Source: a virus. Taken from it: a stretch of DNA of 39,249 bases. Where the stretch lies: positions 1 through 39,249 of IMG/VR virus record IMGVR_UViG_3300025107_000159; one strand, 5' to 3'. The notes below the pieces were generated by a model. It did not search any database, was not told where the DNA came from, and worked only from the letters and a program-made list of their open reading frames with translations. How positions within the stretch are numbered: position 1 is the stretch's first letter; each line of letters starts with the position of its first letter. Below, one piece after another: positions 24,787 to 39,249 of the stretch. The translations under genes were made by a program, and so were the position numbers.

Positions 24787-24816
24787 TTTAGATAAAATCG
24801 ATAAAGGATAATAATC

Positions 24817-25185: not shown

Positions 25186-25234
25186 CGTGATCCAGTTGCA
25201 AATACAGACGGAGTTTAAATTTTAGGACTGAAAT

Positions 25235-25657: not shown

Positions 25658-25673
25658 TTGATTTTACTAATTA

Positions 25674-25976: not shown

Positions 25977-25981
25977 AATAA

Positions 25982-26236: not shown

Positions 26237-26411
26237 CCGATACCCAGCATCGCGGGCGGGTAGATTGACGCGCACGTACTAAGCGCTGCGCTAAAACCGC
26301 TTCAATTACCGCCCTACCAACCACTAGCACCGGATCGACGCCCAACATATCGGAATACAGCGCCGCCCACTTTTCTGAATCAAATTCATCTAGCACTTCT
26401 GGCTTACCCAT
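26070..26411 (-). CDS. ORF derived from a portal protein C-terminus
   Basis: The first 25 residues after MG (KPEVLDEFDSEKWAALYSDM and the next five) match the portal segment KPDVLDKFDSDKWADMYSDM at about 20 of 25 positions. The following helix and an AQQKQQGAL stretch also recall the portal tail, with a foreign-looking insert between them. The DNA is clearly diverged from the portal gene of this phage, so it is probably from a relative. A perfect AGGAGG lies five bases before the ATG (26417-26422), which suggests expression rather than simple debris. The total is 113 residues; the part overlapping the plus-strand gene is less certain. Confidence 0.5.
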   Translation of the reverse strand: MGKPEVLDEFDSEKWAALYSDMLGVDPVLVVGRAVIEAVLAQRLVRARQSTRPRCWVSVNGMLYWVDHAVLDQMRAAQQKQQGALAGSPPGRIRSLAELQLLLATEKTKRLAS

Positions 26412-26427
26412 AACACCCTCCTAAATT

Positions 26428-26452
26428 GAAACCCGCCCAGTGCGGTTTTTTT
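26428..26452 (+). terminator. Probable terminator of the repressor operon
   Basis: AAACCCGC, loop CCAGT, GCGG and then seven T on the plus strand; the stem has one bulged C. It stands just upstream of the rightward early promoter and would isolate the immunity operon from the early operon. Confidence 0.55.
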
Positions 26453-26480
26453 GCATTCTACCTCACCGCGTTAAAAATAA

Positions 26481-26494
26481 TTACCTGTAGGTAT
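26481..26494. promoter_or_regulatory. Operator copy 3
   Basis: TTACC-TGTA-GGTAT, one arm position off from perfect symmetry. Its last base is the first base of the -35 box of the rightward promoter. Confidence 0.7.
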
Positions 26495-26522
26495 TGACGA
26501 TACAATTACCCTAAGGTAATAT
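26494..26522 (+). promoter_or_regulatory. Rightward early promoter
   Basis: TTGACG, 17 bp, TAATAT on the plus strand, a near-consensus sigma-70 promoter 38 bp before the first gene of the right arm. Operators overlap the -35 box and the spacer/-10. No other strong promoter was noticed before the retroelement, so this one probably feeds the small proteins, two DGR targets and the replication genes. Confidence 0.8.
26506..26519. promoter_or_regulatory. Operator copy 4
   Basis: TTACC-CTAA-GGTAA, perfect, extended by A/T on both sides (26505-26520). It covers the spacer and part of the -10 box of the rightward promoter, as copy 1 does for the leftward one. Confidence 0.78.
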
Positions 26523-26559
26523 CAATTCCGTAGCAAAACAATCTATCAGGAGATCAAAA

Positions 26560-26913
26560 ATGCAAACCGCTGAAAAGCAGATCGTCGATCTGCTCACCCA
26601 AGTGCTAAAGGTCGCGCAAACGCTGGTCAAACAGCGCGATACCACCCAAACCGCAGCGCCAGTACCCAAACGTTCAAGGCGCGTCTCTGCGCTTGGCGTT
26701 GGCATCTTCCCGATGCAATCGAAATACAACCCGTATCGCGCGTTTCAGTGGGACAAGGAGTTACACAAGAACATCCTGCTCGGCGGCTTCCCGTCTATCG
26801 CCAAAGCAAAACAAGCCCAGAAAGACTACCTCGCGGGCCGCCCGATCGCCAGCGGCACAAAAGCTGCAAAAGTAGCCTACGCCAAACCGACACTCGTTAA
26901 GAAGGCGGCCTGA
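26560..26913 (+). CDS. Basic DNA-binding-like protein, possible AP2-type domain
   Basis: A 117-residue protein and first gene after the rightward early promoter. An N-terminal helix (about 1-25) is followed by a basic linker (VPKRSRRVSAL) and a segment SKYNPYRAFQWDKELHKNILLGGFPSIAKAKQAQKDYLAG. The YRAFxW...LGGF...A..A pattern is like phage AP2 DNA-binding domains. The C-terminus is Lys/Ala-rich. A strong AGGAGA site precedes the ATG. The assignment rests on pattern only. Confidence 0.6.
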   Translation: MQTAEKQIVDLLTQVLKVAQTLVKQRDTTQTAAPVPKRSRRVSALGVGIFPMQSKYNPYRAFQWDKELHKNILLGGFPSIAKAKQAQKDYLAGRPIASGTKAAKVAYAKPTLVKKAA

Positions 26914-26915
26914 CC

Positions 26916-27293
26916 ATGTACCTGCCGTCCCTTAACGATGAAGAACTGCTGCGTTACGCAGAATCTACCCAGAACGCAATCACGTCCACCAATCTTGAAA
27001 CCGAGTTGATCAAGCGCTTTGCTGACCTACTTGAAAACCAAGACGATGCACGCTTGGCACCACTGGACGAGATCGATGCAACTGTCGAAGACGTCCAAGC
27101 ATTAACCGGCGCACTGATCGAGAGCTGCACAGCCAGCGCAAAAATGCTGACCGCAATCAACGACGCAGGTATTGATGATCTCGAAGATCTGAAAACCGCA
27201 CTAGAAACCGCACGCAAGTTCACTGACTACATCGATGAAAACGCCGGTGCAGTCGCCTTGCTTCACGAATTAATCATCTCAACCACCCGCTAG
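26916..27293 (+). CDS. Acidic helical protein, function unknown
   Basis: A 125-residue acidic protein made of helices (NDEELLRYAESTQNAITS, ETELIKRFADLLENQDDA, ALETARKFTDYIDENAG). It starts 2 bp after the previous stop and ends 7 bp before the first DGR target gene. I do not recognise a family; similar short helical proteins precede DUF1566 genes in other prophages as I recall, but this is not certain. Confidence 0.55.
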   Translation: MYLPSLNDEELLRYAESTQNAITSTNLETELIKRFADLLENQDDARLAPLDEIDATVEDVQALTGALIESCTASAKMLTAINDAGIDDLEDLKTALETARKFTDYIDENAGAVALLHELIISTTR

Positions 27294-27300
27294 GACAATC

Positions 27301-27714
27301 ATGAAAACCACGATAGAACTGCACGGCATCACGATCGAGTCTGCCGACGTGAACGCGACACAAACAACCCCTGCCCCGATAGCTGCCCAGGAAGAAATCT
27401 ACATCGGCGCAATCATCAACGCTAAAGGCGAAGGTCATCACGTCTTTCTGCTACCCGGCGATCACGAAGCCAACTGGGTGGATTCACTCGAGTGGTCGAA
27501 ATCAATCGGCGGTGACCTGCCGACACGTGTTGAGCAAGCACTTCTCTTCGCAGACTTCAAGAATGAATTCGAGGAACGCGCTTACTGGTCAAACGAGCAG
27601 CACGCAGCTTATTCAGGTTGTGCCTGGTATCAGGACTTCAACTACGGCTATCAGGACCTCAACCGCAAGGACGGCAAGTTGCGCGCCCGCTCAGTCCGCA
27701 GATCGAAATTTTAA
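27301..27714 (+). CDS. DGR variable protein 1 (DUF1566/Lcl-type)
   Basis: A 137-residue protein without a signal peptide. The N-terminal 30 residues (MKTTIELHGITIESADVNAT) are its own. From about 33 on it has the common target body: EEIYIGAIIN, GHHVFLLPGD, SIGGDLPTRVEQALLF, then YWSNEQHAA, WYQDFNYGYQ and a final LRARSVRRS. The E-ALL...YWS...RxVR pattern is that of DUF1566/Lcl_C domains, a C-type-lectin-like fold used by many DGR targets. The last third carries VR1 with 13 substitutions relative to the template, all at template adenines. The product probably displays a diversified binding surface; its ligand is unknown. Confidence 0.85.
   Translation: MKTTIELHGITIESADVNATQTTPAPIAAQEEIYIGAIINAKGEGHHVFLLPGDHEANWVDSLEWSKSIGGDLPTRVEQALLFADFKNEFEERAYWSNEQHAAYSGCAWYQDFNYGYQDLNRKDGKLRARSVRRSKF
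27599..27704 (+). repeat. DGR variable repeat VR1
   Basis: 106 bp aligned without gaps to the TR. Differences lie at TR positions 36762, 36769, 36772, 36786, 36795, 36801, 36807, 36810, 36811, 36817, 36822, 36825 and 36826, each an adenine in the TR. The 3' stretch AAGTTGCGCGCCCGCTCAGT is identical, then one C replaces TR A36851. Confidence 0.95.
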
Positions 27715-27743
27715 AAATCAAACAACCAAAGGAGAAAAGCACC

Positions 27744-28106
27744 ATGAATAACCCAGAACTAAACGAAGGTGAAATCTACGCGGGCATCCTGCTGGGCAAG
27801 GATGGCGAGCAGGATCAACACATTTTCTTGCTCCCACTACGGGCAGACGATGCCGTGACGTTCAAGCAGGCGCAGGAATTCGCTAAGGCAACTGGTGGTG
27901 ATCTGCCAACCCGTCGCGAACAGGCACTGCTCTTTGCGAACTTGCCTGAGCAGTTCGAAGAGACCTGGTACTGGTCTGGCGAAGAGCACGCAGCTAGTTC
28001 AGGTTTTGCCTGGTATCAGGACTTCAGCTACGGCAATCAGGACTACGACCGCAAGAACGACGAGTTGCGCGCCCGCTCAGTCCGCAGATCGAAAATTTCC
28101 GCTTAA
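27744..28106 (+). CDS. DGR variable protein 2 (DUF1566/Lcl-type)
   Basis: A 120-residue protein. I choose the ATG at 27744 because AAAGGAG precedes it and the same leader and start occur before variable protein 3; a longer frame upstream overlaps VR1 and is not credible. The body is LNEGEIYAGILL, HIFLLPL, ATGGDLPTRREQALLF, ETWYWSGEEHAA, WYQDFSYGNQ and LRARSVRRSKI. VR2 covers the C-terminal third with 12 adenine substitutions. Its first 20 codons and the 50 bp before VR2 are almost identical to variable protein 3, while the middle differs. Confidence 0.87.
   Translation: MNNPELNEGEIYAGILLGKDGEQDQHIFLLPLRADDAVTFKQAQEFAKATGGDLPTRREQALLFANLPEQFEETWYWSGEEHAASSGFAWYQDFSYGNQDYDRKNDELRARSVRRSKISA
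27985..28090 (+). repeat. DGR variable repeat VR2
   Basis: 106 bp aligned without gaps to the TR. Differences lie at TR positions 36763, 36769, 36772, 36786, 36793, 36795, 36807, 36810, 36813, 36817, 36825 and 36828, all TR adenines. The conserved 3' end has the same A-to-C difference at 36851 as VR1 and VR3. Confidence 0.95.
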
Positions 28107-28133
28107 CTCATTCAAACTAAAAGGAGCCTCACT

Positions 28134-28514
28134 ATGTCACTCGAAGCAGCAATTCAGGAAAACACCAACGCACTCCGCGAACTGATCAGCCATATCTCAG
28201 GATTGAAAGCCGCGAACGACGTATCGACAACAAAACCGCATCTTGCTGTTGTCGAAAAACCGGCCACTAGCAAAACCGAAACGAAGGTTGAAAAGGTTGC
28301 CGAAAAAGCTGCTGAACAGGCGCCAGCAAAAACCCTGACGTTTGATGATGTGCGCATCCCGTTCGTTGCGATGGCGACTAAGAAAGGCAACGCCGCCGTT
28401 ATCGCTGTGCTGGCGCAGTTCGGTGTTGACGCAGCAGCTGGTGGCAAACTGTCCAATATCCCTAGCGAAAAGTGGTCTGACGTTCTGGCCGCTATCCAGA
28501 AAGCGAGCGCCTAA
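28134..28514 (+). CDS. Conserved early phage protein, function unknown
   Basis: A 126-residue protein with an N-terminal helix (LEAAIQENTNALRELISHIS), a Lys/Ala/Thr-rich linker (about 33-72) and a compact C-terminal domain (TFDDVRIPFVAMATKKGNAA, LAQFGVDAAAGGKLSNIPSE, KWSDVLAAI). The C-terminal pattern recurs in proteins next to single-strand annealing or ssDNA-binding genes of phages. It ends 2 bp before the DUF2800 gene, so a role in recombination is possible but not shown. Confidence 0.6.
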   Translation: MSLEAAIQENTNALRELISHISGLKAANDVSTTKPHLAVVEKPATSKTETKVEKVAEKAAEQAPAKTLTFDDVRIPFVAMATKKGNAAVIAVLAQFGVDAAAGGKLSNIPSEKWSDVLAAIQKASA

Positions 28515-28516
28515 TC

Positions 28517-29815
28517 ATGGCTCACGCGATTCTTTCGCCATCTGGTGAGCACCGTTGGGGCGCATGCCCTGGCGCGCCCGCAATGGAGATGGACAAGCCC
28601 AACACATCCAGCAAGTACGCGGATGAAGGTACAGCCGCCCACTTCTTGGCGTCTGAGTGCCTGACCTCTGGCGTCAATGCGCTGGCACATAAAAACCGGA
28701 AGATCTTTGTCGGAGAGGAGATCACCGGCTGGGGCAATAACATCGCCTTTTGTCTTAAAGAAAAAGGCTCTGACTTCGAGGTGGATGCTGACATGGTTCG
28801 CCACGTTCAGGTGTATCTGGACATCGTTCGCGACTATGCCAAAAGCGGACCGCTGCTGGTTGAACAGTCCCTACCGATTGACCATATCACCGGTGAAGCC
28901 GATGCCGAAGGGACTGGCGATGCCGTTGTACTTCCCGACGGCGAGATCATCGTCATCGATCTCAAGTACGGTCAAGGTCTGGAAGTCAGCGCCGAAGACA
29001 ACGGCCAGCTCAAGATGTACGCCCTGGGCGCGCTGAAGAAGTACGAAATGCTTGGGGACTACAAACGGGCGCGCCTCGTTATCGTTCAGCCTCGCATCAA
29101 CAGCCAGCCATCTGAGTGGGATATCTCGATCGACGATCTCGTTGTCTGGGGTGAAGAGACCAGCAAGCGGGCAAAAACGGCATTGATCGCACTTGAGTTT
29201 CGCAGCAACTGGATGGGGCGCGAGCTTCAGTATCTCGTCCCTGGTGAAAAGCAGTGCCACTTCTGTAAGGCGAAAGCAACTTGCCCGGCACTAGCCGCCA
29301 AGGTAGCGGAGACCGTCGGTGCGCAGTTCGAGGACATCACGCCCGAGCACATTAAAGAAGAAGTAACGGCAATGGCGAACGATGACGCAGGCCTGCTTGG
29401 CGCGATGATGAAATCGGTGGACCTGATCGAAGACTGGTGTACCGCGATCCGTGCGGAAGTTGAGCGTCGATTGCTAGCTGGCTCGCCGGTCGGTGGCTAC
29501 AAGCTGGTACAGGGCAAACGCGGCAATCGCGCCTGGACAGATGCAGAAGCTGCTGAGCAGATGCTCAAAGGTATGCGTCTGAAGACTGAACTGAAGCTCG
29601 AAGAAGATCCGATCTACACCTACAAGCTGGTATCACCGACTGTCATCGAGAAGCTGCTGAAAGAAGCCAGCCCGAAACGTTGGGCGCGTCTGCAACCTCT
29701 GATAGGCCAGTCCGAAGGCAAACCATCCGTCGCCGTTGAGTCTGACAAGCGTCCCGCCCTGGTGCGCGGTGCGGATCAGTTCGCCGACGTCATCGATGCG
29801 GAGGCTTTCGTATGA
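28517..29815 (+). CDS. DUF2800 nuclease (PD-(D/E)XK, Cas4-like)
   Basis: A 432-residue protein. It starts LSPSGEHRWGACPGAPAME with ADEGTAAH, the conserved opening of DUF2800 and RecB-like phage nucleases. GDAVVLPDGEIIVIDLKYGQG carries the D...D-x-K catalytic set (about residues 136-155). Cysteines in GACPG and in CHFCKAKATC (about 248-257) are spaced like a Cas4-type iron-sulfur cluster. The family is expected to act as an exonuclease in phage recombination with the ssDNA-binding protein encoded downstream. Confidence 0.85.
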   Translation: MAHAILSPSGEHRWGACPGAPAMEMDKPNTSSKYADEGTAAHFLASECLTSGVNALAHKNRKIFVGEEITGWGNNIAFCLKEKGSDFEVDADMVRHVQVYLDIVRDYAKSGPLLVEQSLPIDHITGEADAEGTGDAVVLPDGEIIVIDLKYGQGLEVSAEDNGQLKMYALGALKKYEMLGDYKRARLVIVQPRINSQPSEWDISIDDLVVWGEETSKRAKTALIALEFRSNWMGRELQYLVPGEKQCHFCKAKATCPALAAKVAETVGAQFEDITPEHIKEEVTAMANDDAGLLGAMMKSVDLIEDWCTAIRAEVERRLLAGSPVGGYKLVQGKRGNRAWTDAEAAEQMLKGMRLKTELKLEEDPIYTYKLVSPTVIEKLLKEASPKRWARLQPLIGQSEGKPSVAVESDKRPALVRGADQFADVIDAEAFV

Positions 29816-29952
29816 AAGTAATTATCTGCATAGCCCTATCGGTAGTACTCATACCGTTTACGTGCGCGGGGTTCGTCTATCGGCTGGCCGCTACCGCTCT
29901 GCGCGTTGGGATCGACCTCGCGGATGACTTGATGCACTGGACTGAGCGATGA
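29812..29952 (+). CDS. Small membrane protein, 46 aa
   Basis: ATGA overlap with the nuclease stop. The product begins MKVIICIALSVVLIPFTCAG, one membrane helix or signal-like segment, and continues with an amphipathic helix ending in DDLMHWTER. It overlaps the next small gene by ATGA. The function is unknown; tight coupling on both sides supports it as a real gene. Confidence 0.55.
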   Translation: MKVIICIALSVVLIPFTCAGFVYRLAATALRVGIDLADDLMHWTER

Positions 29953-30128
29953 CACCGGCGAAGAAGCACACCGGCCCGCCACTGGCTCGAATACTACCGC
30001 CTGAGGCTTGTACCTTGCTTCAGGCGGCGGCAAGAGAACCACCGGAGTCTAGGGCAAGAGCGATTGATGCCGCAATCGACAAAGTGAAGTTGAAATACCC
30101 GCAGTTTTTTAAATCAGAAAAGGAGTAA
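29949..30128 (+). CDS. Small helical protein, 59 aa
   Basis: It starts in the ATGA that ends the small membrane protein. The product has a Pro-rich N-terminus (KKHTGPPLARILPPEA) and two helices (TLLQAAAREPPESRARAIDA, AIDKVKLKYPQFF). Its last codons contain the AAGGAG of the DUF2815 gene. No family recognised. Confidence 0.55.
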   Translation: MTPAKKHTGPPLARILPPEACTLLQAAAREPPESRARAIDAAIDKVKLKYPQFFKSEKE

Positions 30129-30132
30129 CACC

Positions 30133-30675
30133 ATGCAATTGAACCACGTACGTTTGAGTTTCCCTGACATTTTCCACGCTGTCGAGTTTAAAACCGGCGA
30201 TGGCAAGCCACGCTTTAACGCCACCTTTCTGGTTGAGCCTGGTAGCGAGAACGATATCAAGATCCGCAATGAGATCAAGCGTTGCGCCTCTGAAGCCTAC
30301 GGTAAGAAGGCTGAAGCCTATCTCAAACAGTGGGAAGGCAATAGCCAGAAATTCGCGTACCTCGATGGCAACCTGAAGGAGTACGACGGCTACGAAGGAA
30401 TGATGTACCTGTCCTGCCACAGCAAGGTGCGCCCTGGTGTATTCGATACCGACAAGACCCCACTGGTTGAAGAAGACGGCCGCCCATACGCTGGTTGCTA
30501 CGTGGATGCGATTGTCGATATCTACGCACAAACCGGCGAGAACCCCGGCATCCGTGGCGCTTTCTCAGGTATCCGCTTCCGTGCAGACGGCGACGCATTC
30601 GGCGGCGGACGTTCAGCCAAGGCTGACGACTTCGCTGACATCACCGAAGGGGCAGAAGCAGAGTCATTCGTGTAA
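30133..30675 (+). CDS. DUF2815 single-stranded DNA-binding protein
   Basis: A 180-residue protein with an OB-fold-like beta pattern (NHVRLSFPDIFHAV, PRFNATFLVEPGS, GMMYLSCHSKVRPGVFD, CYVDAIVDIYAQ, RGAFSGIRFRADGDAFGGG) and an acidic C-terminal tail (ADITEGAEAESFV). DUF2815 proteins resemble T7 gp2.5 and bind ssDNA in phage replication modules; the acidic tail typically contacts partner proteins. It belongs with the DUF2800 nuclease and the family A polymerase. Confidence 0.85.
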   Translation: MQLNHVRLSFPDIFHAVEFKTGDGKPRFNATFLVEPGSENDIKIRNEIKRCASEAYGKKAEAYLKQWEGNSQKFAYLDGNLKEYDGYEGMMYLSCHSKVRPGVFDTDKTPLVEEDGRPYAGCYVDAIVDIYAQTGENPGIRGAFSGIRFRADGDAFGGGRSAKADDFADITEGAEAESFV

Positions 30676-30786
30676 GCCGACTCCCAATCGGCATTTGGTA
30701 GAGCGATCTACCCATCAACGTCTTACGGGTTTCCTGATAGTTCCCGCAGGAGGTTGGTGGATTAGCGTTCAAACAAGGAGATTCAC
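30676..30786 (+). other. Structured intergenic segment with three hairpins
   Basis: Three short inverted repeats follow in order: GCCGA/TCGGC with a 7-base loop (30676-30692), GGTAG/CTACC with a 6-base loop (30697-30712), and CGGG/CCCG with a 13-base loop (30726-30746). There is no T-run, so it is not a plain terminator, and it does not fold as a tRNA. It may be an mRNA processing or stability element. An AAGGAG near its end serves the next gene. Confidence 0.4.
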
Positions 30787-30951
30787 ATGTGCACACATAA
30801 CTGGACTACGACAGCGGTAGAAGGAAAAACCCGCGCTAAATGCGCTCGTTGCGGCATCGTCCGTACCTGGACGTTCGTACATAACTCGAAGTTTCACCCC
30901 GAGAAAGTACCTCACACAGTGCCTTACAAAATAGAAAGACCGGCAGCGTGA
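30787..30951 (+). CDS. Small zinc-ribbon-like protein, 54 aa
   Basis: The product starts MCTHNWTTTAVEGKTRAKCARCGIVR. The C-x-H and C-x-x-C pairs could hold one zinc ion. The rest is basic and Pro/His-rich. An AAGGAG site precedes the ATG and the stop overlaps the next gene. Phages often carry such small zinc proteins in replication operons; the function is unknown. Confidence 0.6.
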   Translation: MCTHNWTTTAVEGKTRAKCARCGIVRTWTFVHNSKFHPEKVPHTVPYKIERPAA

Positions 30952-31130
30952 ACTACTTCAGCGATAGCGACGATTCGCCCGACGACGATACCGACGAAGG
31001 CGTGACTTGTAGCCGCCGTGGCGCAACCGGCCTGAACTGGTTTAACACCGGCGTGCGCTGGGTACTGATCGGCGACAAAGGGCCGCACCAATGCCAGAAA
31101 ACAGCATCAGCTAATGATTTCAAGGATTAA
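30948..31130 (+). CDS. Small acidic protein, 60 aa
   Basis: It starts with GTG in a 4-bp overlap with the zinc-ribbon-like gene and stops at the base before the polymerase ATG. The N-terminus is very acidic (DSDDSPDDDTDEG) and the rest is basic and aromatic (CSRRGATGLNWFNTGVRWVL). No family recognised. Perfect packing supports it. Confidence 0.5.
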   Translation: MNYFSDSDDSPDDDTDEGVTCSRRGATGLNWFNTGVRWVLIGDKGPHQCQKTASANDFKD

Positions 31131-33194
31131 ATGAGACTTTACCTAGACACTGAAACGTACTCCGAAACGCCGATCACTTACGGCACATACCGATACGTTC
31201 AGGATTCCGAATGCATGATCGTCACTTGGGCGGTCGATGACGGCCCGATCCAGTGCCTCGATCTGACCGCGCGCGATCCTGAAGATGCGATCCACTTCGC
31301 GAGTCTGCTGTCGTGTATCGACAATGCTGACGAGATCGTCGCGCACAATGCGATGTTCGACCGGCTGGTAGTCAATCAGCATATCAGTGAACAGCCGCGT
31401 GAAAAATGGCGCTGCTCGATGGTGAAGGCATACGCCCATTCTCTCCCTGGTAGTCTGGACGCGCTGTGTGGAATATTGAAAGTTTCACAGGCTGACGCCA
31501 AGCAAGACGGTAAGAAGCTGGTACATCTGTTCTGCAAGCCGCGCCCAAAGAATATGTCCATCCGCCGCGCGACGCGTGAGACGCACCCTGAAGAGTGGCA
31601 AGCCTTCCTCGAATACGCGAAAGCGGATATCTCTGCAATGCGCGAGGTATACAAGCGCCTGCCGAACTGGAATTACTCAGGCAACGAGCTGGCGCTGTGG
31701 CACCTTGACCAGAAGATCAACGATCGAGGTTTCCAGGTGGATGGCGACCTCGTGACCGCTGCGCTCAATGCTGTTGCATCTGAGCAAGGTCGCCTTGCCG
31801 CGCATACCGGCACGCTCACCTCGGGCGAACTGACCAGTGTCACAAAGCGCGAGCCGTTGTTCGAGTACATCCTGGCTGAGTACCGGGTATCGCTGCCTGA
31901 TCTGAAGATGGCAACCCTCGAACGCCGCCTCGCGGATCCGGATATCCCCGACGGGCTGAAAGAGTTGCTGCGCGTCCGTCTTCAGGTCACCACGACCAGC
32001 ACCAGCAAATATAAATCTCTGGCACGTGGCACAACTCGCGACGGGCGGCTGCACGGTACGCTCCAGTTTGATGGCGCTGGCCGTACAGGTCGCTGGAGTG
32101 GTCGCACCTTCCAACCCCAGAACCTGCCTAGCCGTGGTCTGCTGCCCGCCGCCGAGATCATAACGGGCATCGATGCCATGAAGGCGGACGTCGCGCACCT
32201 CTGTTTTGAGAATGTGATGCACCTCGCCAGCTCCGCAATTCGCGGCTGCATCGTCGCCCCCGAAGGTAAGAAGCTGGTGATCTCCGACTTGTCGAACATC
32301 GAAGGCCGCATCCTCGCCTGGCTCGCCGGTGAAGAATGGAAGCTGCAAGCGTTCCGCGACTTCGACAACGGCACGGGCGCTGACCTCTACAAACTAGCCT
32401 ACGCGAAAGCGTTCCGCATCCGTGTCGAGGATGTCGATAAGCACATGCGCCAGATCGGCAAGGTAATGGAGCTGGCTCTCGGGTACGAGGGCGGCGTCGG
32501 TGCGTTCCTGACGTTCTCGCTGGCCTACGCCATCGACCTCGAAGAGATGGCCGCTGCTGCCATCGAATCCCTACCGGCTGCCGTCTACGAAGATGCCGAA
32601 GGGTTCTATAACTGGACGGTGAAACAGAATCGCTCGACGTTCGGCCTGAGCAAGGATGCCTTCATCGTGTGCGATGCCTTCAAACGCCTGTGGCGCTTAG
32701 CTCACCCGATGGTGTCAACGCTGTGGAAAGAGTTGGAAGCCGCTGCGATCGAGGCCACCGAGAATCCTGCCGTCACGATCCACTGCCGCCGCTTCAAGGT
32801 TCGCCGTGACGGTGCATGGCTGCGCATCGGCCTGCCCTCTGGCCGCGCGCTGTGCTACCCACAACCGCAAGTCGAGAACGGCAAATTATCGTACATGGGC
32901 ACAAACCAGTACACACGCCAGTGGGGTCGCATCAGCACCTACGGCGGCAAGCTGGTTGAGAACTGCACGCAGGCCGTAGCGCGTGACGTGATGGCCGCCA
33001 ACATGCAGCGGATTGAGGACGTGGGCTTTGAGATCGTGCTGACCGTCCACGATGAAATCATTACGGAAGCGCCCGATGACGAATGTTTTAACGCTGGTTT
33101 GTTATCTGACTTGATGACAACACCGAATGCCTGGCACGCAGGCCTGCCCCTCGCGGCGACAGGTTTTGAAGATTATCGATACAGGAAAGACTGA
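31131..33194 (+). CDS. polA-like: Family A DNA polymerase with 3'-5' exonuclease
   Basis: A 687-residue replicative polymerase. The N-terminus begins YLDTETYSETP, the first exonuclease motif of DEDD type; further exonuclease acids occur near HNAMFDRLV and YAKADI. The polymerase part has motif A in VISDLSNIEGRILAWLAGE (about 384-402), the O-helix-like region about 435-455 (KVMELALGYEGGVGAF) and motif C VHDEI (about 642-646). No 5'-3' exonuclease domain is present, as usual in phage polymerases. It should copy phage DNA with the primase-helicase of the left arm. Confidence 0.93.
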   Translation: MRLYLDTETYSETPITYGTYRYVQDSECMIVTWAVDDGPIQCLDLTARDPEDAIHFASLLSCIDNADEIVAHNAMFDRLVVNQHISEQPREKWRCSMVKAYAHSLPGSLDALCGILKVSQADAKQDGKKLVHLFCKPRPKNMSIRRATRETHPEEWQAFLEYAKADISAMREVYKRLPNWNYSGNELALWHLDQKINDRGFQVDGDLVTAALNAVASEQGRLAAHTGTLTSGELTSVTKREPLFEYILAEYRVSLPDLKMATLERRLADPDIPDGLKELLRVRLQVTTTSTSKYKSLARGTTRDGRLHGTLQFDGAGRTGRWSGRTFQPQNLPSRGLLPAAEIITGIDAMKADVAHLCFENVMHLASSAIRGCIVAPEGKKLVISDLSNIEGRILAWLAGEEWKLQAFRDFDNGTGADLYKLAYAKAFRIRVEDVDKHMRQIGKVMELALGYEGGVGAFLTFSLAYAIDLEEMAAAAIESLPAAVYEDAEGFYNWTVKQNRSTFGLSKDAFIVCDAFKRLWRLAHPMVSTLWKELEAAAIEATENPAVTIHCRRFKVRRDGAWLRIGLPSGRALCYPQPQVENGKLSYMGTNQYTRQWGRISTYGGKLVENCTQAVARDVMAANMQRIEDVGFEIVLTVHDEIITEAPDDECFNAGLLSDLMTTPNAWHAGLPLAATGFEDYRYRKD

Positions 33195-33195
33195 C

Positions 33196-33837
33196 ATGCT
33201 GAAAATACCTACAAACTTACTCAATGCTATCAGCCAGTTTGCCGCTACGAAAGAACTGCGCGATTACCTGAACGGCGTAACCCTTGAACTGCGCGGCGGT
33301 GTCTTGCGCATGATGGCTACCGACGGCGTACTGGTCGGCGTGTGTTTGCTGCCAGATGAATACCCGCCAGAGGAGGCTGACGGTGCGTGGATCATGCCGA
33401 AAGCCATGGTCGAGGCGATCATCAAGTCAAAGGTCAAGCAGAGCTACGTCACGATAGGCCCCGACAGCGTAACAAACGGATCAAGCGCAACGCTCAGTGT
33501 CTCGCTCAATGGCGCGCAGCTGTCATTTCGTGCGATCGAAGCCCGCCCGATTGACTGGCGGCGCGTCATTCAGATCCCGAACATGCCGGTCGCGCCGAGC
33601 AACTTCGACGCGGCACTGCTGGGGCGCATCGCCAAGGCGTCAAAGCTATCAGGGTCGAGCAAGTGGGGCTATTTTGGGCTTCAGCAATACGGCGATAAGA
33701 CAGGGCTGTTCAGCATCGATGGCGTGAACATCGTCGGGGCAGTTTCACCACTTAACCCAAATACTACGCCCCAGTTCAGCGCGACCCTACTGCACGACAC
33801 GGTAGACCACGTATTGGGTGCGGAGCAATTCGTATGA
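33196..33837 (+). CDS. Sliding-clamp-like protein (DnaN-related)
   Basis: A 213-residue protein. I choose ATG 33196 because CAGGAAAG precedes it; a longer frame runs into the polymerase gene. LRDYLNGVTLELRGGVLRMMATDGVLVGVCLLP resembles the first domain of the bacterial beta clamp, and FDAALLGRIAKASKLSGSSK and FSIDGVNIVGAVSPL resemble a second clamp-like domain. The protein is shorter than beta (about 366 residues), so it may form a ring with more subunits or act differently. Position after the polymerase fits a processivity role. Assignment by pattern. Confidence 0.6.
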   Translation: MLKIPTNLLNAISQFAATKELRDYLNGVTLELRGGVLRMMATDGVLVGVCLLPDEYPPEEADGAWIMPKAMVEAIIKSKVKQSYVTIGPDSVTNGSSATLSVSLNGAQLSFRAIEARPIDWRRVIQIPNMPVAPSNFDAALLGRIAKASKLSGSSKWGYFGLQQYGDKTGLFSIDGVNIVGAVSPLNPNTTPQFSATLLHDTVDHVLGAEQFV

Positions 33838-34133
33838 GAGAGCGCGACATCGAGACGTACCTTGTCGAGCGCGTGAAAGCAATCGGCGGCGAGGTTCGCA
33901 AGGTTAAATGGGTTGGTCGTAGTGGCGCGCCTGACCGCTTCGTGATGCTCAGAACGGGCTTACGCGTCGGTGAGTACTACACCACGTCTGTCTGGGTGGA
34001 ACTGAAAGCACCCGGCGAGAAGGCGAAGCCGCACCAGCTGCGCGAACATAAGCGTATGCACGACATGGGGCAACTGGTTGAAGTGATCGACTCATTCGAG
34101 GGTGTTGATAGATTACTGGGGATCTCCAAATGA
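33834..34133 (+). CDS. VRR-NUC nuclease
   Basis: A 99-residue stand-alone VRR-NUC domain of the PD-(D/E)XK group: RERDIETYLVERVKAIGGEV, SGAPDRFVM (the GxPD motif with catalytic D), WVELKAPGEK (ExK) and PHQLREHKRM. Such small nucleases accompany SNF2 helicases in phage replication modules and may resolve branched DNA. ATGA overlaps on both sides show coupling with the clamp-like and helicase genes. Confidence 0.88.
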   Translation: MRERDIETYLVERVKAIGGEVRKVKWVGRSGAPDRFVMLRTGLRVGEYYTTSVWVELKAPGEKAKPHQLREHKRMHDMGQLVEVIDSFEGVDRLLGISK

Positions 34134-35506
34134 AACGCGACTACACGCCACGCGAGTACCAGGGCATCATCGGCCGTCATATCCTTGACGTCCCGCGTGG
34201 TGCAGTCTGGGCAGGCATGGGGCTGGGTAAAACCGTCTCCACGCTGACGGCACTTGATACCTTGTTCATGGCCGGTGAAGACGCGCCCGTGCTGGTGCTG
34301 GCTCCGCTGCGCGTGGCTAAGACCACATGGCCAGAAGAAGCGAAGAAGTGGAGTCACTTCCGCCAGATCGAGGTGATGCCTATCGTCGGCAATGAAGCCG
34401 AGCGGCGCCGTGCGCTGGATGCCGACGCGTCGGTCTTCACCACCAACTATGAGAATCTAGTCTGGCTAGTCAAGCATTACGGTGACCGCTGGCCGTTTCG
34501 TACTGTGGTCGCCGATGAAGCGACCAAACTCAAGGGCTTCCGCTTACGTCAAGGCGGCAAGCGCGCCCAGGCACTGGCAAGCGTGGCGCACACCAAAGTG
34601 AAGCGCTTCATCAACCTAACCGGCACACCTTCGCCGAATGGCCTTGAAGACCTGTGGGGTCAGACATGGTTTCTCGATGGCGGTGAACGCCTTGGCCGCA
34701 CCTTCACGGCGTTCCGTGAGCGTTGGTTTCAGAAGTCCTTCGACGGGTACGGGAGCATCGCACTGCCAAGCGCCCAGGGCGAAATGCAGGACAGGCTGCG
34801 CGACATCTGCCTGACGATCGATGCGAAAGACTACTTCGATCTGGATGAGCCGATCGTCAACAACATCTATATCGATCTGCCGATCCGCGCCCGTGAGTTG
34901 TACCAGGACATGGAGAAACAAATGTTCATGGAACTGGAAGGCCATGAGGTGGAAGCGTTCAACGCCGCAGCGCGCACCGGCAAGTGCCTACAGATCGCCA
35001 ATGGCGCGGCCTATATCGACGACAAACAGAATTGGAAGGAAGTACACGATGCGAAGCTGCAAGCGCTTGAAGAAATTATCGAAGAGGCAGCAGGCGCTCC
35101 TGTGCTCGTCGCCTACCATTTTAAGAGCGATCTGGCGCGAATACTGCATACCTTCCCACAGGCGCGCAGCCTTGATGCTAACCCGAGCACTATTAAGGAG
35201 TGGAACGAAGGGCGCATCCCGGTACTGCTTGCGCACCCTGCTTCTGCCGGCCACGGGCTGAACCTACAGGACGGCGGCAATATCCTGGTGTTCTTCGGAC
35301 ACAACTGGAATTTGGAAGAACGCTTGCAGGTCATCGAACGAATCGGCCCCGTCCGGCAGAAGCAAGCAGGCCACGACCGCCCGGTGTTCATCCACAACAT
35401 CATTGCGCGCGACACGGTGGACGAGATGGTCATCGAGCGGGTCGAAACGAAACGGGAAGTACAGGACATCTTGTTAGCAGCCATGAAACGAAAGGGTTAC
35501 AAATGA
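34130..35506 (+). CDS. SNF2-type DEAD-box helicase
   Basis: A 458-residue helicase. The N-terminal RecA domain has Walker A GMGLGKTVSTL (about 29-39), motif II VVADEATKLKG and motif III NLTGTPSPNGLEDLWGQ. The C-terminal domain has VLVAYHFKSDL, LLAHPASAGHGLNLQDGGN and the arginine-bearing ERLQVIERIGPVRQ motif VI. It matches compact phage SNF2 helicases that go with VRR-NUC nucleases. Confidence 0.9.
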   Translation: MKRDYTPREYQGIIGRHILDVPRGAVWAGMGLGKTVSTLTALDTLFMAGEDAPVLVLAPLRVAKTTWPEEAKKWSHFRQIEVMPIVGNEAERRRALDADASVFTTNYENLVWLVKHYGDRWPFRTVVADEATKLKGFRLRQGGKRAQALASVAHTKVKRFINLTGTPSPNGLEDLWGQTWFLDGGERLGRTFTAFRERWFQKSFDGYGSIALPSAQGEMQDRLRDICLTIDAKDYFDLDEPIVNNIYIDLPIRARELYQDMEKQMFMELEGHEVEAFNAAARTGKCLQIANGAAYIDDKQNWKEVHDAKLQALEEIIEEAAGAPVLVAYHFKSDLARILHTFPQARSLDANPSTIKEWNEGRIPVLLAHPASAGHGLNLQDGGNILVFFGHNWNLEERLQVIERIGPVRQKQAGHDRPVFIHNIIARDTVDEMVIERVETKREVQDILLAAMKRKGYK

Positions 35507-35817
35507 AATTCACACACCAGAAAAAAGTATATCGCGCCGTCTGCCTGCAATGGAACGGGCAAAACTTCGACGCAGTCACCGACACACTTCGCGGGTTGGG
35601 CTACGACGATTTCGAAACATGGGGCGATCGGATCATGGCGCGAGGCAAAGGCCTCTCCTTGCTCGCTGTCGCTCAAGGTAATTGGCTCCGTATCGGCGAG
35701 AACGGTTCATTCAAGATCATGCGCCCAGACGATTTCGCCCTGCTCTACGTACCGATCCAGTGCGACGAAGACGGTGGCGATGGCTGGGCAGGACTTGACC
35801 AGACGCAAATGCAGTAG
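35503..35817 (+). CDS. Small early protein, 104 aa, function unknown
   Basis: It starts in the ATGA overlap with the helicase stop; a longer frame upstream lies inside the helicase gene and is not credible. The product is beta-rich (KKVYRAVCLQWNGQNFDAVT, GDRIMARGKGLSLLAVAQGN, WLRIGENGSFKIMRPDDFAL). The last part resembles small phage proteins with a GDW.....NG....V....F ending. Function unknown. It separates the replication module from the DGR cassette. Confidence 0.65.
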   Translation: MKFTHQKKVYRAVCLQWNGQNFDAVTDTLRGLGYDDFETWGDRIMARGKGLSLLAVAQGNWLRIGENGSFKIMRPDDFALLYVPIQCDEDGGDGWAGLDQTQMQ

Positions 35818-35861
35818 ACCAAACACAATTCACGCAACAACAACCAAAGGAGAAAAGCACC

Positions 35862-36212
35862 ATGAATACCCCAGAACTAAACGAAGGTGAAATCTACGCC
35901 GGTGCGATCATCAACCCAGACGGCACAGGTCACCATTTCACTTTACTCCCCGGCGACATCGATGCCGCAAACTGGGATGACGCGATGGAGTGGGCGCAGT
36001 CTATCGGCGGCGATCTGCCTGATCGTGTTGAGCTGGCGCTGCTCTACAAGCGTTTGCCTGAGCAGTTCGAAGAGACCTGGTACTGGTCGGGCGAAGAGCA
36101 CGCAGCTGATTCAGATTATGCCTGGTATCAGGACTTCAACAACGGCTATCAGAACTACAACCGCAAGCTCCTCAAGTTGCGCGCCCGCTCAGTCCGCAGA
36201 TCGAAAATTTAA
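35862..36212 (+). CDS. DGR variable protein 3 (DUF1566/Lcl-type), cassette-proximal target
   Basis: A 116-residue protein starting MNTPELNEGEIYAGAII, then GHHFTLLPGD, SIGGDLPDRVELALLY, ETWYWSGEEHAA, WYQDFNNGYQ and LRARSVRRSKI. The C-terminal third carries VR3, with 9 substitutions against the template, including two AAC codons turned into CTC (Leu). It lies 21 bp before avd, the classical target, avd, TR, RT order. Leader and start are shared with variable protein 2. No signal peptide or membrane helix was seen. Confidence 0.9.
   Translation: MNTPELNEGEIYAGAIINPDGTGHHFTLLPGDIDAANWDDAMEWAQSIGGDLPDRVELALLYKRLPEQFEETWYWSGEEHAADSDYAWYQDFNNGYQNYNRKLLKLRARSVRRSKI
36097..36202 (+). repeat. DGR variable repeat VR3
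   Basis: 106 bp aligned without gaps to the TR, 654 bp upstream of it. Differences lie at TR positions 36762, 36786, 36801, 36810, 36817, 36822, 36823, 36825 and 36826, all TR adenines, plus the shared C at 36851. A TTAATTAATTAA palindrome follows at 36209-36220, where some DGRs have a hairpin or cruciform that helps homing. Confidence 0.95.
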
Positions 36213-36232
36213 TTAATTAAGGTTTTATCCGC

Positions 36233-36589
36233 ATGGAAAACCCATCTAACCCGCTCCTGTACAAAGCAGCGTATGACTTGCTCAGTACCGTCGTTGATCT
36301 GGTCAGCAATATGCCAAGGGGCTTTAAAAACTCCGTAGGCATTACGACCAGCGATGAGTGCATGGCTGTCGTCGTGCTGATCTTTCGCGCCAGTTGCGCG
36401 CAAGAGAAAGCAGAGTACGTCAGTGAGCTTACCGAACGACTACAAGTCACTGAGTTGTTATTGCGTCTGTCCAGGGACAAGAGGTTGATCTCAACTGGAC
36501 AGTACGCAAACGCGATCGAGCTGACAGGCGATGTCCGGGCGCAGGTTAGTGGGTGGCCGCGTTCAGCGATATCGTCTGCCAGGAGATAG
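36233..36589 (+). CDS. avd: DGR accessory variability determinant (Avd)
   Basis: A 118-residue helical protein: LLYKAAYDLLSTVVDLVSNM, PRGFKNSVG, a helix AVVVLIFRASCAQEKAEYVS, LQVTELLLRLSRDKRLIS, QYANAIELTGDVRAQVSGWP. This four-helix pattern with FK..VG and the final GW is that of Avd proteins, which form a barrel-shaped pentamer, bind the reverse transcriptase and template RNA, and are needed for cDNA synthesis. Its end contains the AGGAG site of the RT gene, which starts 2 bp later. It separates VR3 from the TR. Confidence 0.9.
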   Translation: MENPSNPLLYKAAYDLLSTVVDLVSNMPRGFKNSVGITTSDECMAVVVLIFRASCAQEKAEYVSELTERLQVTELLLRLSRDKRLISTGQYANAIELTGDVRAQVSGWPRSAISSARR

Positions 36590-36591
36590 TC

Positions 36592-37971
36592 ATGGCTACC
36601 ACTTCAGTACGAGAATTTAATCTGGTCGTGCCGCTGGCGAAAGCCACCGACAAGCGCACCTCAGATACCGCCAGCGCCTGCTGGGTCAGGTCTGGCGCAG
36701 TTTCCTTAGGGAGCAATCCTCAAGGCGACGTGGATAGCACGAATGGTCGCAGCACGCAGCTAATTCAGATTATGCCTGGTATCAGAACTTCAACAACGGC
36801 AATCAGAACAACAACCACAAGAACAACAAGTTGCGCGCCCGCTCAGTCCGAAGATCATACCGTAGGCCACCATGCTGACTTTTCTTTCGAGGAACTGGTT
36901 CAAGCCTACCTCGATTGCCGCCGTACAAAACGCAGCAAGTCATCTGCTCTTGCGTTCGAGCAGCATCTCGAAGCGAATCTATATTGTCTCGACCGGGAAC
37001 TGAGAGACGGTACGTACGCACCCGGGAAATCAATCTGCTTTGTCATCACGCGACCTAAACCCCGCGAGGTATGGGCGGCAGACTTCCGTGACCGCGTCGT
37101 GCATCACCTATTGTACAACCGCATATCGCCGCGCTTCTATGCCGGTTTTAGTGTCGACAGTTGCGCATGTATACCAGGGCGCGGGACACTCTACGGTGCC
37201 GAGAGATTAGAAGCCAAGATCAGAAGCATCACGCAGAACTGGAGCAAACCAGCTTACTATTTAAAACTCGATCTGGCTAACTTCTTTGTCAGTATCGATA
37301 AAAGAATCGTGAGGGAATTACTCTCGAGGCGTGTCACAGAATCATGGTGGATGGCGCTCACCGATACGGTTCTATTCCACGATCCCCGCAAGAACTTTGA
37401 GTTTAAAGGCGACCTCAGCAAAACGGATCTCGTACCGGCGCACAAGAAACTAGCCAATCACCCGGCTGATTTTGGATTACCGATCGGCAATCTGTCGTCG
37501 CAGTTCTTCGCTAACGTCCTGCTGGACGCACTGGATCAGCACGTTAAGCACGACATCAAAGCGCGGCATTACATCCGTTACGTTGACGACTTTATCCTAC
37601 TGCATGAGTCTGCACAGTGGCTCAATAACGCCAAGGCTGACATCGAGGCGTGGCTGCCCGCGCATTTAGGCCTACGTCTTAATCCTACGAAAACCATATT
37701 GCAACCGGTGTCGCGCGGCGTGGACTTCGTCGGGCAAGTGATCAAGCCATGGCACAGGGTAACCCGCAAACGCACGGCCAATGATGCGATGTACCGCGTG
37801 TCGACCATGCCGGCACCTGAACTATTTGAGGCGGCTAATTCCTATTTTGGCTTGTTCGGGCAAGCAACGCACGGACGCCAAAAACGCGCACAGCTAGCCA
37901 ATATCCTCCGGAAACGAGGGTATTCAATAAACACCAGCATAACAAAAACATATAGAAGGAAATCAGCATGA
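36592..37971 (+). CDS. DGR reverse transcriptase with the template repeat inside its N-terminal coding region
   Basis: 459 residues from the ATG at 36592, chosen for AGGAG at 36581-36585 and close coupling to avd. Residues about 1-53 are unrecognised, 54-88 are the TR read in the RT frame (Thr-rich), and the RT domain starts near FSFEELVQAYL at about 96. Catalytic motifs: YLKLDLANFFVSID (D227 region), FGLPIGNLSSQ (294-304; the IGNLSSQ form is typical of DGR enzymes) and YVDD (330-333). A basic maturase-like region follows. No in-frame ATG lies between TR and RT domain; the only other one is at 36772, inside the TR and without a binding site. The enzyme copies TR RNA into adenine-mutated cDNA. 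Confidence 0.88.
   Translation: MATTSVREFNLVVPLAKATDKRTSDTASACWVRSGAVSLGSNPQGDVDSTNGRSTQLIQIMPGIRTSTTAIRTTTTRTTSCAPAQSEDHTVGHHADFSFEELVQAYLDCRRTKRSKSSALAFEQHLEANLYCLDRELRDGTYAPGKSICFVITRPKPREVWAADFRDRVVHHLLYNRISPRFYAGFSVDSCACIPGRGTLYGAERLEAKIRSITQNWSKPAYYLKLDLANFFVSIDKRIVRELLSRRVTESWWMALTDTVLFHDPRKNFEFKGDLSKTDLVPAHKKLANHPADFGLPIGNLSSQFFANVLLDALDQHVKHDIKARHYIRYVDDFILLHESAQWLNNAKADIEAWLPAHLGLRLNPTKTILQPVSRGVDFVGQVIKPWHRVTRKRTANDAMYRVSTMPAPELFEAANSYFGLFGQATHGRQKRAQLANILRKRGYSINTSITKTYRRKSA
36751..36856 (+). repeat. DGR template repeat (TR)
   Basis: 106 bp matching VR1, VR2 and VR3. Read in the VR frame the core (36762-36830) contains ten AAY codons, the usual design in which mutation of the first two adenines yields many amino acids but no stop. 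The 5' end (AGCACGCAGC) and the 3' end with the G/C-only GCGCGCCCGC at 36834-36843 are constant. At 36851 the TR has A where all VRs have C. The TR RNA probably extends into the flanking avd 3' end and RT 5' region. Confidence 0.95.
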
Positions 37972-38189
37972 GTATGTTCCTGACGGCAGAAGATATATCA
38001 ACGTTAACCGGCAGGCAGCGCAGCGATGCCTAAGTAAGGATGCTTAAATTTATGGGCGTCGAGCACCGCATACGGGCCGATGGCAAGGTCGTTGTACTCC
38101 GTGCCCATGTTGAGTCCGTATTCGGTATAGCACCCGCCAGCAACAAAAAAGTTAAAGAGTACAAGCTCGATCTAAGCACAATCCGGTGA
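37968..38189 (+). pseudogene. DUF4224 gene with an in-frame stop
   Basis: The frame starts in ATGA overlap with the RT stop and reads MSMFLTAEDISTLTGRQRSDA, then TAA at 38031-38033, then in the same frame VRMLKFMGVEHRIRADGKVV and on to a TGA at 38187-38189. DUF4224 proteins lie just before phage integrases and have Gln at the stop position (R..AQ...L...G), so one CAA-to-TAA change explains it. The family is thought to help integration or excision. An ATG at 38040 could allow a restart. Readthrough is also possible. Confidence 0.8.
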
Positions 38190-38199
38190 GGCACACAAA

Positions 38200-39249
38200 A
38201 TGGCACCCAAACGAAAAGCTGAAAATAAAGGACTACCGGCGCGCTGGAAGCTTCAGCACGGCGCGTACTATTACCGCGTCCCTCCTGGTCTGGAAATGCT
38301 ATGGGACGACAAGCAGTTTTTCCGACTGGGTAAAACCTTGCCCGAAGCATATAAAGTATGGGCGGACAAGATCGGATCGAGCGAGAAGGCGCACACCATT
38401 GGCCAGCTGCTCGACCGTTACATCCTCGAAGTCGTACCGACCAAGGCTATAACGACTCAATCGGGCAATCTAGTATTCATTAAGGCACTTCGCGCCACCT
38501 TCGGGGAATTTCCACTTGAGGCGATGAAGCCGATACTCGTGCACCAATACGTAGACGCACGCTCAGCCAAGATTTCCGCGCACCGCGAAGTGGAGATTCT
38601 TTCGCACGCGTTCACCAAGGCCGTGCAGTGGGGCTATCTGGATCGCCACCCGTTCAAGGGTGAGGTACGACTAGAAGGCGAGAAACCCCGCACCCGCTAC
38701 GTTGAGGACTGGGAACTGATCGAGGCGCTGTCCCTACCGGCCATGCGCAAGAAGGGCAGCGTGAAGATGATCCAAGCGTATCTGAAGGTTAAGCTGCTAA
38801 CTGGGCAGCGACGCGGCGACCTGTTACGCCTGACGGCAACTGACATGCAAGCGGACGGCATTCACATCATGCCGAGTAAGACAACGAACAGCACCGGAAA
38901 ACGCCTGATCGTCCAGTGGTCTGACGAATTGCGTGCCGCCGTTGCCGAAGCGAGGGCTTCGCGCCCAACCATCTCACCTTTTTTGTTTTGTAACAAGTTT
39001 GGTGAATGCTATATCGACGAGGCAACTGGAGAAGCACACGGCTGGGACAGCATGTGGCAACGCTTCATGGATCGGCTGCTAAAAGATACTAAGATCGAAA
39101 CGCGATTTACGGAACACGACATACGCGCGAAGTGCGCGAGCGATGCGACTACTCTTGCGCACGCTCAGCAGCTGCTTGCGCATGCAGATGGGAAGACGAC
39201 AGAGCGGATTTATCGCAGAAAACCGGAGATGGTAAAGCCGTTGAGATAG
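38200..39249 (+). CDS. int: Tyrosine integrase
   Basis: A 349-residue site-specific recombinase, complete at the end of the window. The N-terminal DNA-binding region (about 1-60, PARWKLQHGAYYYRVPPGLE) and core-binding domain (about 65-160) precede the catalytic domain with the first Arg in LLTGQRRGDLLRL, a conserved basic residue near PSKTTNSTGK, HDIR in FTEHDIRAKCAS, His in LLAHADGKT and the tyrosine in ERIYRRK. It integrates and excises the prophage. The attachment site is expected close by, beyond 39249. Confidence 0.93.
   Translation: MAPKRKAENKGLPARWKLQHGAYYYRVPPGLEMLWDDKQFFRLGKTLPEAYKVWADKIGSSEKAHTIGQLLDRYILEVVPTKAITTQSGNLVFIKALRATFGEFPLEAMKPILVHQYVDARSAKISAHREVEILSHAFTKAVQWGYLDRHPFKGEVRLEGEKPRTRYVEDWELIEALSLPAMRKKGSVKMIQAYLKVKLLTGQRRGDLLRLTATDMQADGIHIMPSKTTNSTGKRLIVQWSDELRAAVAEARASRPTISPFLFCNKFGECYIDEATGEAHGWDSMWQRFMDRLLKDTKIETRFTEHDIRAKCASDATTLAHAQQLLAHADGKTTERIYRRKPEMVKPLR

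What the first reader, a model, noticed from the sequence alone, without database searches (positions are those of the whole stretch)
27599..36856. DGR with one template and three variable target genes
Seen directly: one TR (36751-36856) and three VRs of the same 106-bp length align without gaps. VR1 has 13, VR2 12 and VR3 9 differences in the core, 34 in total at 18 positions, and every one falls on a template adenine. An Avd gene and an RT with IGNLSSQ and YVDD lie at the TR. Established: adenine-directed mutagenic retrohoming is the mark of diversity-generating retroelements. A single cassette feeding three targets, two of them 8-9 kb away, is less common than the single-target type.
Basis: partly seen in the sequence, partly recalled or inferred. 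Interest (0 to 1): 0.93.

Follow-up and report, generated by a model that had tools for sequence, protein, structure and literature searches.

The report
Phage hypermutation cassette with three targets
A relative of the Bordetella phage BPP-1 carries a diversity-generating retroelement that rewrites three small lectin-like genes from one template; the three targets are normal for this subfamily, but its template and a known orphan RNA (RT-15) seem to be translated as the front part of the reverse transcriptase gene, which I have not found described.

Summary
The TR (36751-36856) matches three VRs without gaps, and all 37 mismatches fall on TR adenines. It is a genuine DGR: Avd, a DGR-type RT, and three short C-type-lectin-fold targets. 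Three targets is not exceptional here: 131 of 138 related loci with at least 2.5 kb upstream have two or more VRs, and 35 have three or four.

(1) The 180 nt just 5' of the TR is the orphan Rfam RNA RT-15 (145.8 bits). Found by RNA alone in 27 of 398 genomes, RT-15 was followed by a DGR TR, VRs and RT in 27 of 28 cases. BPP-1's known DGR RNA lies 3' of its TR instead. (2) The RT has no start codon between TR and RT domain. Its frame runs back through TR and RT-15 to an ATG with a Shine-Dalgarno at the avd stop. In the window's clade, 40 of 44 inferred length changes keep frame, and 56 of 71 loci have an RT-frame start at the avd stop (other frames: 1 and 0).

The phage is syntenic with BPP-1, but this DGR lies in the early region and targets no tail fibre. 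Translation and RNA roles are inferred, not measured.

The parts
36751..36856 (+). Template repeat (TR), 106 nt, 38 adenines; read in a different frame as part of the RT ORF
   Evidence: frame analysis
27599..27704 (+). Variable region 1 (14 mismatches to TR, all at A)
27985..28090 (+). Variable region 2 (13 mismatches, all at A)
36097..36202 (+). Variable region 3 (10 mismatches, all at A)
27301..27714 (+). Target gene 1, 137 aa, Lcl_C/DUF1566-like C-type lectin fold, VR at C terminus
   Evidence: Lcl_C E 1.3e-4, below the curated cut-off; alignment A1
27744..28106 (+). Target gene 2, 120 aa, same family, tandem with target 1
   Evidence: Lcl_C E 1.5e-5, below cut-off
35862..36212 (+). Target gene 3, 116 aa, same family, next to avd
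   Evidence: Lcl_C E 1.1e-6, below cut-off; AlphaFold2 pLDDT 95.7; best PDB match Legionella Lcl C-terminal domain 8q4e
36233..36589 (+). avd, 118 aa accessory protein; stop codon TAG 36587-36589
   Evidence: PHROG 3206 Avd E 8.5e-21; Pfam bAvd E 8.3e-8, below cut-off
36570..36749 (+). RT-15 RNA (Rfam RF03018), ends 1 nt before the TR
   Evidence: 145.8 bits, E 2.4e-36; 28 of 41 predicted pairs show compensatory changes across 53 loci
36581..36585 (+). Shine-Dalgarno AGGAG, 6 nt before ATG 36592, in the 5' arm of the first RT-15 hairpin
36592..37971 (+). Proposed full RT ORF (459 aa): ATG 36592, through RT-15 and TR, into the RT domain
36868..37968 (+). Conserved DGR reverse transcriptase domain (IGNLSSQ, YVDD)

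Best explanation
This is a DGR of a distinct, RT-15-bearing subfamily, carried by a temperate phage whose genome is otherwise syntenic with Bordetella phage BPP-1. One transcript runs avd - RT-15 RNA - TR - RT. Ribosomes finishing avd start again at ATG 36592 and translate straight through the structured RNA and the TR into the RT, so the TR both templates the targets and, in another frame, encodes the RT's N terminus (inferred from comparative evidence). When not being translated, RT-15 folds 5' of the TR and helps Avd-RT select or copy the TR (inferred from position and conservation only). Adenine-mutagenised cDNA then replaces the VR of any of three short C-type-lectin-fold genes (pattern shown; process by homology to known DGRs). 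Two targets lie in the early replication operon and one beside avd. None is a tail fibre and none has an evident export signal, so I think they are small soluble binding proteins acting inside the cell or after lysis rather than virion adhesins (weakest inference, about 0.6).
For: DGR. Subfamily active: related pairs differ in VRs at TR adenines while TR stays constant. RT-15 at TR: Rfam hit in the window, in 24/24 viral relatives and in 22/24 genomes of relatives (the two without it, of L088 and L161, also lack a detected TR/VR). Searched by RNA alone in 398 genomes, 27 of 28 hits are followed by TR, VR(s) and RT and one by an RT remnant. Structured: compensatory changes at 28 of 41 pairs. 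RT read through TR: no start codon (ATG/GTG/TTG) between TR end and RT core in 109 of 135 loci. TR-to-RT linker is 19-55 nt but 1 mod 3 in 117 of 126; most exceptions (44 nt, or 332 nt in L048) have their own ATG after the TR. On an RT tree the window's clade shows 44 length changes from RT-15 to RT core with 4 changing frame, against 18 of 32 in the other loci. RT-frame ATG/GTG at the avd stop in 56/71 clade loci, against 1/71 and 0/71 in the other frames. Window start has AGGAG at 6 nt; none of 87 loci with an in-TR ATG has one with an SD. Targets. Early-region location and synteny with BPP-1.
Against: No transcript, protein or retrohoming data. Codon-position substitution in the leader is nearly flat (0.255/0.233/0.278), so its amino acids are not conserved as such; only frame and RNA are. 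RT-15 does not fold significantly better than shuffles as a single sequence (z -0.5). A second group of relatives (mostly Pseudomonas and others) does not keep the leader in frame and some have an in-frame stop inside the TR, so read-through from the avd stop is not universal. The clade used for the frame test was chosen after looking at nested clades, and its P values assume independent events. The conserved ATG at the avd stop lies inside a conserved RNA hairpin, so RNA constraint could contribute to it. The record may be truncated at its left end, where BPP-1 carries its own DGR.
Confidence: 0.75

Rival explanations
1. The DGR is ordinary and the RT starts at an ATG inside the TR (36772 in the window), so only the 3' part of the TR is translated and RT-15 is an untranslated 5' leader.
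For: 88 of 135 loci have their last ATG before the RT core inside the TR; in the Pseudomonas-type group an in-frame stop in the TR is followed by such an ATG.
Against: None of the 87 loci with in-TR ATGs has one with a Shine-Dalgarno; 12 loci have no start codon in the TR at all; in the window's clade the leader is kept in frame and starts cluster at the avd stop. In-TR ATGs follow from conserved target codons (YAW, NGN/DGN).
Confidence: 0.2
2. The open RT frame through RT-15 and TR is a by-product: the RNA sequence and the target-coding constraint on the TR happen to exclude stops in that frame, and the RT starts by some unrecognised route.
For: Conserved RNA motifs put stops in the other two frames; the TR is stop-poor because it is AAC-rich.
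Against: It does not explain frame-keeping of the unconserved TR-RT linker (14 length changes, 1 frame change, even outside the window's clade) or of leader indels in the window's clade.
Confidence: 0.07
3. VR1 and VR2 are dead paralogues left by gene duplication and only VR3, beside avd, is an active target.
For: The three target proteins are paralogues (63-65% identical); VR3 is the closest to the TR in sequence and position.
Against: Each VR has its own pattern of adenine-only changes with no change at other positions; distal VRs with adenine-only changes are common in relatives, including cultured phage Magia.
Confidence: 0.05
4. The targets are virion adhesins that switch host tropism, as Mtd does in BPP-1, although encoded away from the tail genes.
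For: Best-known phage DGR function; Roux et al. 2021 find viral targets of several clades to be tail proteins (PMC8144416).
Against: Targets are 116-137 aa with no tail-attachment domain, and lie in the early region among replication genes; median 157 aa across 293 targets of relatives.
Confidence: 0.3

Closest known systems
Burkholderia phage Magia DGR (MT701587; PMC7883833)
   Same: Same RT family (65% identity), Avd, short lectin-fold targets, one TR with three VRs (one 7 kb upstream), and the TR inside the annotated RT CDS that begins at an ATG upstream of the TR
   Different: Myophage backbone; authors report two targets (gp47, gp57), while the scan here also finds a VR in gp46; RT-15 and the TR-in-RT frame are not discussed in the passages read
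Bordetella phage BPP-1 and its Mtd DGR
   Same: The phage backbone: 25 of 40 window ORFs match BPP-1 proteins, nearly all in the same order; same basic DGR logic
   Different: RT only 30% identical; BPP-1 DGR sits at the tail end with one target (Mtd) and a structured spacer RNA 3' of the TR (RF03022); here the DGR is at the early/integrase end, has three small targets, and its RNA lies 5' of the TR
Rfam RF03018 RT-15 RNA
   Same: The window's leader matches the full model at 145.8 bits
   Different: Rfam names it only RT-15 RNA; no link to DGRs found in the open-access library searched; the paper I recall as its source was not held
DiGReF group 3 DGRs (Schillinger et al. 2012, PMC3521204)
   Different: Described there as cassette geometry only; no test of frame, start or RNA

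Membership tests
Diversity-generating retroelement (DGR) | TR and VR differ only (or nearly so) at template adenines | tested here: met
   37 of 37 mismatches at A
Diversity-generating retroelement (DGR) | DGR-clade reverse transcriptase near the TR | tested here: met
   RVT_1 E 1.7e-15; PHROG 1423 reverse transcriptase E 1.2e-111; motifs IGNLSSQ, YVDD; 30% identity to BPP-1 Brt
Diversity-generating retroelement (DGR) | Accessory protein Avd | tested here: met
   PHROG 3206 E 8.5e-21; Pfam bAvd below its cut-off
Diversity-generating retroelement (DGR) | VR at the C terminus of a C-type-lectin-fold target | tested here: met
   AF2 pLDDT 95.7, best PDB match Lcl C-terminal domain 8q4e, then C-type lectins
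Diversity-generating retroelement (DGR) | TR constant while VRs change over time | tested here: inconclusive
   Met in related pairs of relatives; no sister genome of the window itself was found
RT-15 RNA (RF03018) | Covariance model above gathering score | tested here: met
   145.8 against 82 bits
BPP-1-type DGR RNA (RF03022 Phage_DGR) | Structured spacer RNA between TR and RT | tested here: not met
   Present in BPP-1 at 2750-2882; in the window no match and the TR-RT gap is too short
BPP-1-like phage (Rauchvirus relatives) | Collinear late and early gene modules | tested here: met
   25 of 40 ORFs match, nearly all in order
BPP-1-like phage (Rauchvirus relatives) | Nucleotide similarity detectable by megablast over the early/DGR half | tested here: not met
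   No megablast match in the phage collection for 24700-39249; the late half was not tested at the nucleotide level

The most novel reading that the evidence does not exclude
A DGR subfamily in which the RT messenger is itself the template RNA: the TR and a conserved structured RNA placed 5' of it (RT-15, not the 3' spacer of BPP-1) are both coding sequence of the RT, entered from the avd stop, so translation of the enzyme and use of the RNA as template compete on one molecule.
Probability: 0.5. Interest if true: 0.75.

Novelty: new variant of a known kind. Interest (0 to 1): 0.55.

Why it matters
It assigns an orphan Rfam RNA (RT-15) to a place beside the DGR template, shows that a DGR's structured RNA can sit on the other side of the template from the BPP-1 model, and suggests that template use and RT synthesis compete on one RNA, which a reporter assay can test. 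It also shows that two phages of the same backbone carry unrelated DGRs aimed at different kinds of protein, so phage DGR function need not be tropism switching.

Tried and rejected
Multi-target layout as the novelty: rejected, since it is the norm in this clade. RT-15 leader as a conserved protein domain: rejected, since codon positions vary almost equally and synonymous sites are strongly constrained (0.784 identical against 0.504 in the RT). A BPP-1-like spacer hidden in the 5' end of the RT gene: no strong signal (0.60 synonymous identity in the first 12 codons). BPP-1's annotated VR2 in bbp36 as an equivalent of the window's early targets: rejected, it is a 24-nt tandem repeat unrelated to its TR. 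The raw count of stops per frame in the leader was not used as evidence, because conserved RNA motifs put stops in the other two frames. Classing loci as 'open' before testing frame was circular and was replaced by the tree count. Perfect inverted repeats of 6 nt or more just downstream of the VRs (a cruciform-type homing signal): none found. Single-sequence folding of the leader: not significant. One search ended in a write error after printing its table; one search repeats the scan and is the one cited for counts.
Full report
OBSERVATION. The TR at 36751-36856 aligns without gaps to 27599-27704, 27985-28090 and 36097-36202 with 14, 13 and 10 mismatches, all at TR adenines. The TR has 38 adenines in 106 positions, and the chance of 37 random mismatches all falling on them is about 3e-17, or 8e-11 if the 19 distinct positions are counted once. 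No other copy exists in the record.

PARTS. Upstream of the TR lies avd (36233-36589; PHROG 3206, E 8.5e-21). Downstream lies an RT with IGNLSSQ and YVDD. The three targets are 137, 120 and 116 aa and end in the VR. They match Pfam Lcl_C (formerly DUF1566, naming from own knowledge) weakly, below its curated cut-off. The 116-aa target is predicted at pLDDT 95.7; its best match among solved structures is the Legionella Lcl C-terminal domain, followed by C-type lectins. The targets are therefore C-type-lectin-fold proteins with almost nothing else attached.

RELATIVES AND ACTIVITY. Searches with the RT gave 80 viral loci and 80 loci in bacterial genomes, mostly Burkholderiales and other Betaproteobacteria, and Pseudomonas. 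A scan for TR/VR pairs found 331 VRs, with mismatches at 4634 of 10921 template adenines but 625 of 23814 other positions. Among 138 loci with at least 2.5 kb upstream, 96 have two VRs, 33 three, 2 four, 2 one and 5 none. One template for several targets is thus the rule in this subfamily. Related pairs show the expected behaviour: VRs differ at 38/72, 31/58 and 29/63 adenine sites but at 3/146, 1/150 and 1/150 other VR sites, and TRs at 1/111, 0/104 and 0/109 (L074/L076, L138/L146, L134/L144). Two contigs otherwise identical over about 4.9 kb (L030/L033) differ at a single VR adenine site, which is suggestive only. No near sister of the window itself was found.

THE RNA NEXT TO THE TEMPLATE. 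Rfam finds RT-15 (RF03018) at 36570-36749, 145.8 bits against a gathering score of 82, ending one base before the TR. It is over the cut-off in 24 of 24 viral relatives tested and in 22 of 24 genomes; the two genomes without it, of L088 and L161, are also loci where no TR/VR was detected. To test the reverse direction, 398 genomes of the family of one host were searched with the RNA model alone. It gave 28 hits over the cut-off in 27 genomes; 27 are followed at once by a TR with VRs and an RT of this family, and one by an RT remnant. Across 53 loci the consensus fold has 41 pairs, 28 with compensatory changes. By contrast, BPP-1 carries a different RNA, RF03022 Phage_DGR, on the other side of its TR, in the spacer before brt, which is where the recruiting and priming RNA of that system is described (PMC12875486). 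The window has no RF03022 match and only a short, unconserved gap between TR and RT. I found no paper linking RT-15 to DGRs. The papers most likely to mention it were not held, so an earlier mention is possible.

THE RT FRAME RUNS THROUGH THE TEMPLATE. There is no ATG, GTG or TTG between the TR and the conserved RT domain in the window, nor in 109 of 135 non-redundant loci. The distance from TR end to RT core varies from 19 to 55 nt but is 1 mod 3 in 117 of 126 loci; most of the exceptions (44 nt, or 332 nt in L048) are loci with their own ATG after the TR. On an RT tree the linker shows 23 length changes with 2 changing frame in the window's clade of 74 loci, and 14 with 1 in the other 57. 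From RT-15 to RT core the window's clade shows 44 length changes with 4 changing frame (P 2e-15 if frame were free), while the other loci show 32 with 18, as expected without constraint. In the window's clade an RT-frame ATG or GTG lies at the avd stop codon in 56 of 71 loci, against 1 and 0 in the other frames; the commonest form is ATGA overlapping the stop. In the window the stop is TAG 36587-36589 and the start ATG 36592, with AGGAG at 36581-36585. By the Rfam structure the Shine-Dalgarno is in the 5' arm of the first RT-15 hairpin and the ATG in its loop. In the published annotation of phage Magia the RT CDS likewise starts upstream of the TR. Leader codon positions vary almost equally and its synonymous sites are strongly conserved, so the leader is kept as RNA and as an open frame, not as a particular peptide.

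LIMITS. The clade for the frame test was chosen after viewing nested clades, parsimony counts are approximate, and binomial P values assume independent events. The conserved ATG at the avd stop is inside a conserved hairpin, so RNA constraint may share the credit. In the second group of relatives, including many Pseudomonas prophages, the leader is not kept in frame and a stop in the TR is followed by an in-TR ATG; these may start inside the TR. RT-15 in the window does not fold better than shuffles on its own.

THE PHAGE. 25 of 40 window ORFs match proteins of Bordetella phage BPP-1: most of the late genes bbp9-bbp25 and bbp29, early genes bbp34, bbp35, bbp38, bbp40, bbp42, bbp43 and bbp47, plus the RT (30%); order is kept except for the RT. 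In BPP-1 the DGR is at the tail end with Mtd as target. In the window it is at the integrase end, with two targets beside the DUF2800 and single-strand-binding genes. The window's left end stops at the bbp9 homologue, so whether this phage also has a tail-end DGR cannot be told.

FUNCTION. The targets of this subfamily are short (median 157 aa over 293; 8 flagged as hydrophobic near the N terminus), lack tail-attachment domains and are encoded with early genes. I think they are soluble binding proteins acting in the cell or after lysis; tropism switching by another route is the main rival. No data here decide it.

VERDICT. A genuine three-target DGR, new member of a known kind in that respect. 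With RT-15 and the TR inside the RT frame it is a new variant of a known kind.

Noticed in passing
window 177-35506: The phage is syntenic with Bordetella phage BPP-1 (25 of 40 ORFs match), yet its DGR is of a different RT family and lies at the opposite end of the genome.
   Followed up: yes
L195 8254 (phage Magia gp46): A third VR in Magia gp46, next to avd; the genome announcement names only gp47 and gp57 as targets.
   Followed up: partly
L194 33229-33558 (BPP-1 bbp36): The annotated 'variable region 2' of BPP-1 is a 24-nt tandem repeat with no resemblance to its TR.
   Followed up: partly
L124, L125, L131, L134, L141, L144, L145, L152, L154: An RT-frame TGA inside the TR is followed by an in-frame ATGATG in the TR, with no start codon between the TR and the RT domain; how the RT is started there is unclear.
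   Followed up: partly
L083 3041-3151 and L084 1449-1559: A distal VR on the strand opposite to TR and RT, about 7 kb upstream.
   Followed up: no
genomes G034 and G189: Two RT-15 loci in one genome, about 31 and 48 kb apart, possibly two DGR prophages.
   Followed up: no
window 1-176 and 39249: The record ends exactly at the integrase stop codon and begins just past the bbp9 homologue, so it looks trimmed or truncated; counterparts of bbp1-bbp4, brt and mtd, which lie beyond bbp9 in BPP-1, are absent.
   Followed up: no
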